A stretch of DNA of 64,000 bases. It comes from Demequina litoralis. GTDB taxonomy: Bacteria; Actinomycetota; Actinomycetes; Actinomycetales; Demequinaceae. The translations under genes were made by a program, and so were the position numbers. The stretch's first letter is position 1, and each line of letters starts with the position of its first letter. Of the stretch, positions 973 to 64,000 are shown piece after piece. Under the pieces are notes generated by a model. The model ran no database searches. It was not told the DNA's origin and worked only from the letters and a program-made list of their open reading frames with translations. Location of the stretch: contig NZ_JAUHPW010000002.1 of assembly GCF_030418455.1 (NCBI RefSeq), positions 248,001-312,000 on the forward strand, read 5' to 3'.

Positions 973-1003
973 GGACGATGCGCCGGTGACCGGCGCATCG
1001 TCC
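973..1003 (-). terminator. icd terminator hairpin built from two opposed 10-mers
   Basis: The arms at 973-987 and 989-1003 are a perfect 15-bp inverted repeat around a single central G. Each arm begins with the dispersed 10-mer (973-982 and 994-1003). It lies just downstream of the icd stop codon at 1010-1012. There is no clear T-run, which is usual for terminators in GC-rich actinobacteria. Confidence 0.8.
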
Positions 1004-1009
1004 ACCGGG

Positions 1010-2227
1010 CTACGCGAGGCGCGCGGCGAGGTTCGTGTCGAGGGTCGCGAGGAACTCCTCGGTGGTCTGCCACTCCTGGTCGGGACCGACCAGCAGCGCG
1101 AGGTCCTTGGTCATCGCGCCGGACTCGACGGTCTTGATGATGACGTCCTCGAGCGTCTCGGCGAAGCCGGTGACCTCGGGCGTCGAGTCGAGCTTGCCGC
1201 GGTGCTTGAGGCCGCCGGTCCACGCGAAGATCGACGCGATCGGGTTGGTCGAGGTCGGCTTGCCCTGCTGGTGCTGGCGGTAGTGGCGCGTCACGGTGCC
1301 GTGCGCGGCCTCCGCCTCGACGGTCGCGCCGTCCGGGGTCATGAGCACGGACTTCATGAGGCCGAGCGAGCCGAAGCCCTGCGCGACGGTGTCCGACTGG
1401 ACGTCGCCGTCGTAGTTCTTGCAGGCCCAGACGTAGCCGCCCTCCCACTTGAGGGCCGCGGCGACCATGTCGTCGATGAGGCGGTGCTCGTAGGTGATGC
1501 CGGCCGCGTCGAACTTGCCCTTGAACTCCGCCTCGAAGACGTCGGCGAAGATGTCCTTGAACGCGCCGTCGTACTGCTTGAGGATGGTGTTCTTGGTCGA
1601 CAGGTACACCGGGTAGCCGCGCTGCAGGCCGTAGTTGAACGAGGCGCGCGCGAAGTCCTTGATGGACTCGTTGAAGTTGTACATGCCCATGACGACGCCG
1701 CCCTCGTCGGGCATCTTCACGATCTCCATCTCGACCGGCTCAGAGCCGTCCTCGGGGGTGTACGTGAGGGTCACGGTGCCGCCGGCGGGGACCTTGTAGT
1801 CCGTGGCGCGGTACTGGTCGCCGTGCGCGTGACGGCCGATGACGATCGGCTGCGTCCAGCCCGGCACGAGGCGCGGGATGTTGTCGATGATGATCGGCTC
1901 GCGGAACACGACGCCGCCGAGGATGTTGCGGATGGTGCCGTTGGGCGAGCGCCACATCTTCTTGAGGCCGAACTCCTCGACGCGCGCCTCGTCCGGCGTG
2001 ATGGTGGCGCACTTGACGCCCACGCCATGACGCTTGATCGCGTTGGCCGCGTCGATGGTGATCTGGTCGTCCGTCGCGTCGCGCTCCTGGATCGACAGGT
2101 CGTAGTACTCGAGGTCCACGTCGAGATACGGGTGGATGAGGCGGTCCTTGATGAACTGCCAGATGATCCGCGTCATCTCGTCGCCGTCGAGCTCGACGAC
2201 CTTGCCCTCGACCTTGATCTTCGCCAT
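1010..2227 (-). CDS. icd: NADP-dependent isocitrate dehydrogenase
   Basis: Decarboxylates isocitrate to 2-oxoglutarate with NADP in the TCA cycle. The 405-residue length and the N-terminus MAKIKVEGKVVELDGDEMTR identify the homodimeric, eukaryote-like subfamily rather than the E. coli type. Recognisable stretches include LVPGWTQPIVIGRHAHGDQY at about 125-145 and EAEAAHGTVTRHYRQHQQG in the C-terminal third. It is followed by a perfect hairpin terminator, then mdh. The intergenic region to the divergent aquaporin gene contains two opposed copies of the dispersed 10-mer, but no obvious operator. Confidence 0.95.
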   Translation of the reverse strand: MAKIKVEGKVVELDGDEMTRIIWQFIKDRLIHPYLDVDLEYYDLSIQERDATDDQITIDAANAIKRHGVGVKCATITPDEARVEEFGLKKMWRSPNGTIRNILGGVVFREPIIIDNIPRLVPGWTQPIVIGRHAHGDQYRATDYKVPAGGTVTLTYTPEDGSEPVEMEIVKMPDEGGVVMGMYNFNESIKDFARASFNYGLQRGYPVYLSTKNTILKQYDGAFKDIFADVFEAEFKGKFDAAGITYEHRLIDDMVAAALKWEGGYVWACKNYDGDVQSDTVAQGFGSLGLMKSVLMTPDGATVEAEAAHGTVTRHYRQHQQGKPTSTNPIASIFAWTGGLKHRGKLDSTPEVTGFAETLEDVIIKTVESGAMTKDLALLVGPDQEWQTTEEFLATLDTNLAARLA

Positions 2228-62278: not shown

Positions 62279-62613
62279 TCCTCGCCGGCGACGGCCCACC
62301 GGCACCGCCCGGTGCGGCGCGCCCGCGTGCAAGTCGTGCGCGCTAATTTCAGGAATCGCTTGAACAGCCCCGCCGGAGGGGCAGTACCGCTGCCCGCTAC
62401 GAGGCCTGTTCAAGCCTGCGTTGACATACGCGGACACGACGCGCGCGTCCGCCCGTCGACACGCGCGCCCCCCACGTCCGGACCCTCAACGACCTCCTCA
62501 ACGCCGCGCAATGCATGGACCGCTTGACCCTGAGGCGTCCCCTGCGCACTCAGGACCTCGCAGGGCGCAGAGCGAGGCGACGGCGTGGTGTGGCGGGTGG
62601 GGTGGGCGGCGGA
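62279..62613. other. 335-base intergenic region with a folded element
   Basis: No gene. GCTTGAACAG (62358-62367) and CTGTTCAAGC (62406-62415) form a perfect 10-bp stem. Inside it, CCCC-GCCGGA-GGGG (62368-62381) and GGGCAG-TACCG-CTGCCC (62379-62395) are hairpins that share three bases and so compete. The flanks (GCGCTAATTTCAGGAATC before, GCGTTGACATACG after) are AT-rich. It lies after lysG and beyond the end of the glycosidase gene, so it may be a bidirectional terminator or a small RNA. There is no 10-mer. Confidence 0.55.
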
Positions 62614-64000
62614 TCAGGCCGCGCAGGCCGGCATCGCGCCCGCGAGCTCGACGGGCCAGTCGCCGCCAGGCTCCGCATCGCCCAGGAGCACGTCCGCGAG
62701 CCCGCGGATCGCGGCCGCGGAGTCGCCGTAGGTCGCGACGTACGCGTCGGCGGTCGAGTCGAATAGCCCCCACGGGCCGCCGAGCGACACCACCACGTCG
62801 GCGGTCGCACGGTAGCCGCCCGAGGACAGCAACGCGATCGACGTGCCGCCGTCGCCTACCTCGACCCCGTGCGACTCGAGCTCGCGCACGAGGGCGCGCA
62901 CCGCATCGTCCGGTCCCCCGACCACGGTGGCTCGGCGCCGCACGAGCGGCCGGTCGCAGTCCTGCGCGGCGACGGTGGTGCCCGCCGCGGCGAAGGTCCG
63001 CGCGTACGCGCGCGACGGCTCCTCCCCGCCGAGGCCGTCGGCCCACCGTGCCAGCAGGATGGAGCGCGCGGCGGCCTCGTCGAGACGGTCGCGCGACAGC
63101 CGGCCGTCCCTGACGGCGGCGGCGATCTCGTCGATCACCGTGCCGACGTCGCCGGGCATGAGGAGCACGTCGGCGCCGGCGCGCAGCGCACGGACGGCGA
63201 CCTGGCCCTGGGAGCGTCCGTCGGCGACCGCGGCCATGTTGAGGGCATCGGTGATCGCGACGCCCGTGAAGCCGAGCTCCTCACGCAGGTACGCGTACGC
63301 CTCGGGCTCCAGCGTGGCCGGGTCGTCGCCCCACTCGGGCACGGCGATGTGACCCAGCATGACGACGGGCGCTCCCGCCTCGATCGCGCGCGCGAAGGGC
63401 ACCATGTCGGTGCGGGCGAGGCGCGTGACGGCGCGCTCCTGGACGGGCAGGCCCGCGTGCGAGTCGACCGTCACGGACCCGTGCCCCGGGAAGTGCTTGA
63501 TCACGGGCACCACGCCGCCGTCGACGAAGCCCGCGACCGCGGCGCTCACGGTGTCCGCGACCGCATCCGGGTCGTCGCCGGCGCTACGGGTGCGGATGAT
63601 GGGGTCCGCCGGGCCCAGCGTGACGTCCGCGACGGGCGCGTAGTCGACGGTGACGCCGAGCGCGCGCATGTCCGCAGCGGAGGACCGGTACGCCTCGGTG
63701 ACCGCCGCATCGTCCGTCGCGGCGCCGGCCGCCATGAAGGCGGGCAGGCTCGGCACGGCGCCCGACAGGCGCGAGACGATGCCGCCCTCCTCGTCGGCGG
63801 ACACCCACACCGGCCAGCCGCGGTCGTCGGCGCGCTGCACGCGGGCCGCGAGCGCCGCGACCGCGTCGGCGGACGGGGCCGCGCCGCCCATGAGGATGAC
63901 GCCGCCGAGGTGGTGCTCGCGCACGAGCGCGGCCGCGGCGGCCGGGTCCCGGGAGTAGAGGTCCGCGACGATCACCTGGCCGGCGGCCCGGCGCAGGGGC
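62614..64000 (-). CDS. Family-3 glycoside hydrolase (NagZ-like), 5' end outside
   Basis: 462 codons are visible; the frame stays open to the window edge (reading PLRRAAGQVIVADLYSRD), so the true N-terminus lies beyond 64000. The substrate Lys-His is in VIKHFPGHGSVTVDSHAGLP, and the catalytic nucleophile Asp is in GVAITDALNMAAV; both are typical of beta-N-acetylhexosaminidases of GH3. A C-terminal alpha/beta domain follows (VVSLGGPWGLFD). It probably trims cell-wall or chitin-type GlcNAc sugars; an exported form is likely, but the signal peptide is not visible. 10-mers at 62902 and 63706 encode Asp-Asp-Ala. Confidence 0.88.
   Translation of the reverse strand, partial: PLRRAAGQVIVADLYSRDPAAAAALVREHHLGGVILMGGAAPSADAVAALAARVQRADDRGWPVWVSADEEGGIVSRLSGAVPSLPAFMAAGAATDDAAVTEAYRSSAADMRALGVTVDYAPVADVTLGPADPIIRTRSAGDDPDAVADTVSAAVAGFVDGGVVPVIKHFPGHGSVTVDSHAGLPVQERAVTRLARTDMVPFARAIEAGAPVVMLGHIAVPEWGDDPATLEPEAYAYLREELGFTGVAITDALNMAAVADGRSQGQVAVRALRAGADVLLMPGDVGTVIDEIAAAVRDGRLSRDRLDEAAARSILLARWADGLGGEEPSRAYARTFAAAGTTVAAQDCDRPLVRRRATVVGGPDDAVRALVRELESHGVEVGDGGTSIALLSSGGYRATADVVVSLGGPWGLFDSTADAYVATYGDSAAAIRGLADVLLGDAEPGGDWPVELAGAMPACAA

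What the first reader, a model, noticed from the sequence alone, without database searches (positions are those of the whole stretch)
973..63715. An abundant 10-mer, GGACGATGCG, with the distribution of a DNA uptake sequence
I count 43 exact copies in 64 kb on both strands (21 and 22). At about 72% G+C, base composition predicts roughly 0.3. Density (about one per 1.5 kb), lack of strand bias, excess in intergenic DNA (17 of 43 in about 8% of the sequence) and inverted pairs at gene ends match the uptake sequences of Neisseriaceae and Pasteurellaceae. The balanced strands argue against Chi-like and FtsK-orienting (KOPS) motifs, which are usually strand-biased; the short core without conserved flanks argues against REP or MITE elements. 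I know of no uptake sequence described in Actinomycetota.
Basis: partly seen in the sequence, partly recalled or inferred. Interest (0 to 1): 0.93.

Follow-up and report, generated by a model that had tools for sequence, protein, structure and literature searches.

The report
Self-label DNA word in Demequina bacteria
The genome of this actinobacterium (genus Demequina) repeats one ten-letter DNA word 1,564 times, and related species use altered spellings of it; it likely works as a "self" label that would let the cells take up DNA of their own kind, a habit that the literature read here describes only in two Gram-negative families.

Summary
GGACGATGCG occurs 43 times in the window (shuffles: mean 1.0) and 1,564 times in the 3.02-Mb genome (793/771 by strand), against 5 for the reversed word. 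Of 396 genomes of the order, only 14, all in the window's genus (Demequina), hold 927 or more copies; none of 362 outside it exceeds 102. Other Demequina clades carry sister words (GGCCGATGC type in 18 of 44 genomes; GCCCGACGCTGT in one) that follow the species tree. Dialects A-D share the core CGATGC and differ at edge positions that also tolerate mismatches within the genome. Copies are evenly spread, show no strand bias, are about 4.5-fold denser between genes, are kept between species at 1.8 times the local rate, and are scarce near prophage capsid genes (3 seen, 20.6 expected). The genome holds a type IVa pilus operon, ComEA, ComEC and DprA. This is the sequence signature of a DNA uptake sequence with dialects, as in Neisseriaceae, but in a Gram-positive phylum. 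Uptake itself is untested. The receptor is unresolved: an orphan pilin beside metE is a candidate with mixed evidence.

The parts
973..1003 (.). inverted pair of the word (+973, -994), intergenic, 14-bp hairpin stem
2308..2349 (.). inverted pair (-2308, +2340), intergenic
37177..37210 (.). inverted pair (+37177, -37201), intergenic, 15-bp stem
39281..39329 (.). inverted pair (+39281, -39320), intergenic, 16-bp stem
55361..55384 (.). inverted pair (-55361, +55375), intergenic
7515..7524 (+). single copy, intergenic
15471..15480 (-). single copy, intergenic
16548..16557 (+). single copy, intergenic
24933..24942 (+). single copy, intergenic
34438..34447 (-). single copy, intergenic
49692..49701 (-). 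single copy, intergenic
6309..6318 (-). single copy, in a called gene
10682..10691 (+). single copy, in a called gene
10754..10763 (-). single copy, in a called gene
11500..11509 (+). single copy, in a called gene
12283..12292 (+). single copy, in a called gene
14473..14482 (+). single copy, in a called gene
18188..18197 (-). single copy, in a called gene
18839..18848 (-). single copy, in a called gene
19568..19577 (+). single copy, in a called gene
22858..22867 (-). single copy, in a called gene
26949..26958 (+). single copy, in a called gene
29102..29111 (-). single copy, in a called gene
29387..29396 (+). single copy, in a called gene
29956..29965 (-). single copy, in a called gene
32350..32359 (-). 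single copy, in a called gene
41165..41174 (-). single copy, in a called gene
41435..41444 (+). single copy, in a called gene
43891..43900 (-). single copy, in a called gene
45598..45607 (+). single copy, in a called gene
45967..45976 (-). single copy, in a called gene
48838..48847 (+). single copy, in a called gene
53085..53094 (-). single copy, in a called gene
53745..53754 (+). single copy, in a called gene
59720..59729 (+). single copy, in a called gene
60934..60943 (+). single copy, in a called gene
62902..62911 (-). single copy, in a called gene
63706..63715 (-). single copy, in a called gene

Best explanation
GGACGATGCG is repeated 1,564 times in this Demequina genome and is likely a DNA uptake sequence: a surface receptor on a type IV pilus would bind DNA carrying the word, pull it to ComEA/ComEC and pass it, as a single strand, to DprA and RecA for recombination. 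Because only kin carry the word, uptake would be biased to kin, and each recombination would spread or restore copies, which is inferred to be how the word built up across the chromosome but not in recently arrived DNA. Clades spell the word differently, so the dialects would act as partial barriers between species. Shown here: the word, its numbers, its even and strand-neutral spread, its strict core and tolerant edges, the dialects, its maintenance between two species, its scarcity near five prophage capsid genes, and the presence of pilus and competence genes. Inferred: binding, biased uptake, competence, and the identity of the receptor.
For: Abundance: 1,564 against 5 for the reversed word; 274 in 644 kb of this genome and G022 against 9.9 by a Markov model, and against mean 3.0, largest 71, for 2,000 permuted words. 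Lineage specificity: 14 of 34 Demequina genomes hold 927-1,564 copies; 0 of 362 other genomes of the order exceed 102. Dialects: GGCCGATGC at 584-2,018 copies in 18 of 44 Demequina genomes, against 44-110 for its reverse in the same 18 (G021, a dialect A genome, also has 664); sampled spellings GGCCGATGCG, -GCC, -GCT, GGACGATGCC and GCCCGACGCTGT; they follow a tree of AlaS, PilB and RpsD for 20 genomes. Core: in dialect A, single changes at positions 4-9 (CGATGC) total 115 seen, 124 expected, while changes at positions 1, 2, 3 (to C) and 10 are in excess; dialects A-D differ only at positions 3 and 10. Spread: no strand heterogeneity over 13 and 17 stretches (p 0.97, 0.95); variance/mean 0.85 and 1.12. 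Intergenic density 1.76 against 0.39 per kb. Maintenance: 39 of 58 sites identical in G022, against 1,144 of 3,054 neighbouring ten-mers (p 4e-6). Prophages: 3 seen, 20.6 expected within about 6 kb of five capsid genes. Machinery: PilB, PilT, PilC, PilM, PilD and pilins in one operon, ComEA, ComEC, DprA.
Against: No uptake, binding or competence experiment for Demequina was found in the held papers. ComEC and pilus ATPases are also present in Demequina species without a clear word, so machinery does not track the word. The best receptor candidate, an orphan pilin beside metE, is not found in several word-rich species and is present in eight of ten word-poor or other-dialect ones; its head domain is net negative in all 32 copies measured, and species with the same dialect have very different orphan pilins. 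Five sampled species (G001, G003, G011, G017, G027) lack a clear word. In dialects B and C a few core changes exceed expectation mildly. Prophage scarcity and site maintenance would also fit other sequence-bound functions.
Confidence: 0.8

Rival explanations
1. The word is the binding site of an intracellular protein (nucleoid-organising, repair or global regulator) and is kept by selection at chromosomal positions.
For: Sites are kept above the local rate and have a strict core with tolerant edges, as any protein site would.
Against: 112 of 156 copies lie inside genes, in either orientation, counts per stretch are near random, and the spelling changes between clades while remaining abundant, which would need about a thousand sites to follow one protein's change.
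Confidence: 0.1
2. The word is a relic: an ancestral uptake sequence that is no longer used in present species and is decaying.
For: Word-poor species exist in two separate branches. Species without the orphan pilin have lower densities (A dialect 87-348 against 323-517 per Mb, 4 and 12 genomes; B-D 234-448 against 276-747 per Mb, 6 and 12 genomes; nominal p 0.004 and 0.016, not corrected for relatedness).
Against: In the window's own clade sites are kept at 1.8 times the local rate between species 10% apart, and the pilus and com genes seen in this genome have open frames.
Confidence: 0.05
3. The word is a Chi-like recombination site or a KOPS-like pointer for chromosome segregation.
For: Similar length and number to Chi in other bacteria (recalled).
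Against: No strand bias: 82 forward and 74 reverse in 318 kb, heterogeneity p 0.97 and 0.95; intergenic enrichment.
Confidence: 0.02
4. The word is a restriction-modification or orphan methyltransferase target, as proposed for HIP1 in cyanobacteria, or a mobile repeat (REP, MITE).
For: HIP1 is also extremely abundant; a palindromic CGCGATCGCG is enriched in this window too (30 seen, 7.5 expected).
Against: The word is not palindromic, has no conserved flanks beyond a weak G preference, and mostly lies singly inside genes. Restriction targets are usually avoided (recalled). No methylome was available.
Confidence: 0.03

Closest known systems
DNA uptake sequence (DUS) of Neisseriaceae, read by the minor pilin ComP
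   Same: Abundant word of about ten bases, intergenic copies and inverted pairs as hairpins, dialects that follow the core-genome tree, a short strict core kept across dialects (CTG there, CGATGC here in dialects A-D), some members of the group without the word, type IV pili (PMC3630211 passages and PMC12616744 introduction for the DUS side).
   Different: Unrelated spelling with no CTG core; host is a Gram-positive actinomycete without an outer membrane (recalled); few copies in inverted pairs; receptor not identified; uptake untested.
Uptake signal sequence (USS) of Pasteurellaceae
   Same: Short abundant word with more than one dialect, role in self-recognition, receptor predicted to be a minor pilin (ComN, PMC12616744).
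   Different: No AAGTGCGGT or ACAAGCGGT core and no AT-rich flank; different phylum.
Micrococcus luteus competence (Actinomycetota)
   Same: Same phylum, comEA/comEC plus a type IV filament (PMC6370729 and PMC4322843 passages).
   Different: M. luteus uses Flp/Tad pili, and the terms for uptake sequences do not occur in PMC8467076 or PMC4322843; Demequina has a type IVa pilus operon.
HIP1 of cyanobacteria
   Same: Extreme abundance of a short word.
   Different: HIP1 is a palindrome tied to methyltransferases (PMC4390886, start of abstract); this word is not palindromic and has clade dialects.

Membership tests
Uptake sequence (functional class) | Short word at hundreds to thousands of copies, far above chance | tested here: met
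Uptake sequence (functional class) | Both strands equally, no replichore bias, even spread | tested here: met
   (stretches of three contigs in two genomes plus whole-genome strand totals)
Uptake sequence (functional class) | Excess in intergenic DNA, some inverted pairs as hairpins at gene ends | tested here: met
   but only 16 of 274 copies are in inverted pairs
Uptake sequence (functional class) | Conserved inner core and dialects that follow the species tree | tested here: met
   core shifts to CGACGC in G008
Uptake sequence (functional class) | Scarce in recently acquired DNA | tested here: met
   3 seen, 20.6 expected near five of the 11 capsid hits, those in word-rich species; host density used as expectation, phage composition not modelled
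Uptake sequence (functional class) | Competence and type IV filament genes in the genome | tested here: met
Uptake sequence (functional class) | A receptor pilin that matches the dialect | tested here: inconclusive
   orphan pilin over 160 bits in 30 of 44 genomes, not found in several word-rich ones
Uptake sequence (functional class) | DNA with the word is preferentially bound, taken up or transformed | not testable with these tools
   needs a competent strain
Neisseriaceae DUS | CTG core (GCCGTCTGAA type) | tested here: not met
   none of the words in dialects A-D holds CTG; the G008 word ends in CTGT, outside its CGACGC core
Pasteurellaceae USS | GCGG inner core and AT-rich downstream tracts | tested here: not met
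   no GCGG within the word and no AT-rich flank
Chi or KOPS | Orientation bias with replication | tested here: not met
HIP1 | Palindrome | tested here: not met
   sequence itself
REP/BIME/MITE | Extended conserved element around the core | tested here: not met
   flanks carry at most 0.45 bit per position

The most novel reading that the evidence does not exclude
Probability: 0.72. Interest if true: 0.95.

Novelty: new variant of a known kind. Interest (0 to 1): 0.88.

Why it matters
It also predicts that several Demequina species are transformable and how DNA for them should be marked, opening genetics in the group.

Tried and rejected
Chance and composition: rejected. Chi/KOPS: rejected on strand balance. 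REP/MITE: rejected on flanks.

Operon minor pilins: strongly divergent; they do not sort simply by dialect. G021 (dialect A) has a short second pilin and low identity to this genome's minor pilins, a layout also seen in G034 and G013 (dialect B); they were not compared with each other directly.

Word in the word-poor species: k-mer scans on 44-109 kb each gave only weak signals, such as GCCGACGCT in G003 (25 seen, 6.8 expected), possibly a remnant of the G008 spelling.

Paper searches whose listings showed no uptake sequence in Actinomycetota. One search (the ten-mer as text) listed 20 of 43 papers, none on bacterial DNA uptake by title. One search (Demequina with natural transformation) listed one paper, not opened. 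Library limits apply: open-licence papers only. I did not open PMC12849477 (M. luteus competence, 2026).
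Full report
1. The observation. The word GGACGATGCG occurs 43 times in the window, 21 and 22 by strand, against a mean of 1.0 in 100 dinucleotide shuffles. In the whole genome (3.02 Mb, 22 contigs) it occurs 793 + 771 times; the same letters read backwards occur 2 + 3 times. In 644 kb sampled from this genome and a relative (G022) it is the commonest ten-mer of all, 274 copies; an order-3 Markov model predicts 9.9, and 2,000 random permutations of its letters average 3.0, with a largest count of 71.

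2. Who the host is. The window's genus is therefore Demequina.

3. How far it reaches. In 396 genomes of the order, 14 of 34 Demequina genomes hold 927-1,564 copies; the other 20 hold 24-123. All 362 genomes outside the genus, including the one from another genus of its family, have at most 102. G028 (711 copies) and G026 (235) were seen in the earlier set.

4. Dialects. Sampling 20-109 kb from other Demequina species showed sister words: GGCCGATGCG (G013, G015, G031, G033, G034), GGCCGATGCC (G007, G014, G023, G036), GGCCGATGCT (G009, G020, G035), GGACGATGCC beside GGACGATGCG (G026) and GCCCGACGCTGT (G008). Whole-genome counts of GGCCGATGC are 584-2,018 in 18 of 44 genomes, against 44-110 for the reversed word in the same 18; G021, a dialect A genome, has 664, and some others are intermediate (G010 487, G006 472, G017 409). 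A tree of AlaS, PilB and RpsD for 20 genomes separates the five dialect A genomes (support 0.98), the four B genomes (1.00) and a C clade that includes the D genome G009 (0.998); two D genomes form their own branch (0.92), and G008 sits next to two word-poor species (0.99). Five sampled species (G001, G003, G011, G017, G027) have no clear word. For Neisseriaceae, Frye et al. (PMC3630211; abstract and passages read) report the like: eight dialects that follow the core-genome tree, and five family genomes with no obvious word.

5. Core and edges. Within dialect A, single changes at positions 4-9 (CGATGC) total 115 seen, 124 expected. Changes at position 1 (99 seen, 29 expected), at position 2 to A or C (68 seen, 14 expected), at position 3 to C (31 seen, 13 expected) and at position 10 (32 seen, 17 expected) are in excess; position 3 to G or T is not. 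Dialects A to D differ at positions 3 and 10 only. In dialects B and C edge changes again dominate, with a few mild excesses in the core, such as C to G at position 9 in dialect C (11 seen, 3.9 expected). The G008 word changes the core to CGACGC. In DUS the CTG core is common to all dialects and is required for transformation (PMC3630211 abstract and passages).

6. Placement. Intergenic density is 1.76 per kb against 0.39 in genes in this genome, and about 1.2 against 0.27 in G022 (gene calls are my own approximation). In genes both orientations occur (65 and 47), mostly in the frames that read Asp-Asp-Ala or Ala-Ser-Ser. Counts per 20-kb stretch are close to random (variance/mean 0.85 and 1.12). 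Strand counts show no heterogeneity between stretches (p 0.97 and 0.95), which rejects Chi-like or KOPS-like bias there. In the loci scanned for hairpins, eight opposite-strand pairs lie within 60 bp; seven of the eight are between genes, all fold into hairpins (-18.5 to -40.7 kcal/mol), and none shows a T run in the eight bases beside it. They are a minority: 16 of 274 copies, and the window is unusually rich in them.

7. Maintenance and foreign DNA. In 130 kb aligned between this genome and G022 (90.0% identity), 39 of 58 sites are unchanged. Permuted words: 15 of 41. Neighbouring ten-mers in the same codon phase: 1,144 of 3,054 (p 4e-6). A capsid family search gave 11 hits in 10 of 44 genomes; I used the five in word-rich species. 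Within about 6 kb of these five, 3 copies lie against 20.6 expected from host density; about 36 kb around one of them (G019) holds none. The edges of the prophages were not determined.

8. Machinery. The genome has one operon with PilB, PilT, PilC, a major pilin, two long and one short further pilin-like proteins, PilD and PilM (PilT and PilM score over their curated NCBIfam cut-offs, PilB just below its own; the two long pilin-like proteins have no Pfam match and were named by place and N-terminus). A PilN-like gene at the edge of the fetched stretch was named by place only. ComEA lies next to ComEC and DprA is present. ComEC is found in 55 of 55 genomes that are at least 90% complete and little contaminated, species without the word included, so its presence does not track the word. 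Secretion-ATPase hits number 4-7 per genome, six here, so other filament loci such as Tad may exist (not tested), and which filament would take up DNA is open.

9. An orphan prepilin gene beside metE is conserved in place, has two conserved cysteines and a type IV pilin fold, and is missing or broken in several species whose word densities tend to be lower. Against it: it is present in eight of ten word-poor or other-dialect species, its head is acidic, and it differs strongly between species that share a dialect. I regard it as one candidate among the pilins.

10. Conclusion. Every sequence-level property of an uptake sequence that I could test is met except the match of a receptor, which is inconclusive; the usual alternatives fail on at least one point. 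What is missing is any experiment on uptake in this genus. [quoted passage not shown] Passages of PMC4322843, PMC8467076 and PMC6370729 on Micrococcus luteus competence name no uptake sequence for Actinomycetota. Searches for Demequina with uptake sequence or with natural transformation listed no paper and one paper, which was not opened.

Noticed in passing
window 3249-3330; also L035 6849-6934, L038 17390-17491, L040 12275-12382, L042 2781-2852: A second, separate element between genes: 72-108 bp inverted repeats with CCAATGACA/TGTCATTGG ends and strong hairpins, three of the five between convergent genes; none contains the ten-mer.
   Followed up: partly
window, 30 copies: The palindrome CGCGATCGCG (HIP1-like GCGATCGC core) is enriched about fourfold (30 seen, 7.5 expected).
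   Followed up: no
L125 3904-3934, L139 2100-2129, L154 1417-1447: A Saprospiraceae metagenome bin carries a larger palindromic repeat that happens to contain the inverted pair; it looks REP-like and unrelated.
   Followed up: partly
L237 (G008) and L238 (G026): ComEC is split into two frames in these two assemblies; G026 has other split genes, so assembly error is possible.
   Followed up: partly
L282 3884-4441 (G017), L286 221-754 (G012): The orphan pilin has altered prepilin cleavage signals in two word-poor species; in G012 the usual glutamate is missing.
   Followed up: no
samples of G001, G003, G011: GAGGCGCTC is enriched about three- to fivefold in word-poor species; it may be codon bias or another word.
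   Followed up: no
L316 and L317 (G019): A region around a phage capsid gene with no copy of the word over about 36 kb; gaps in the word may help to mark foreign DNA in this genus.
   Followed up: partly
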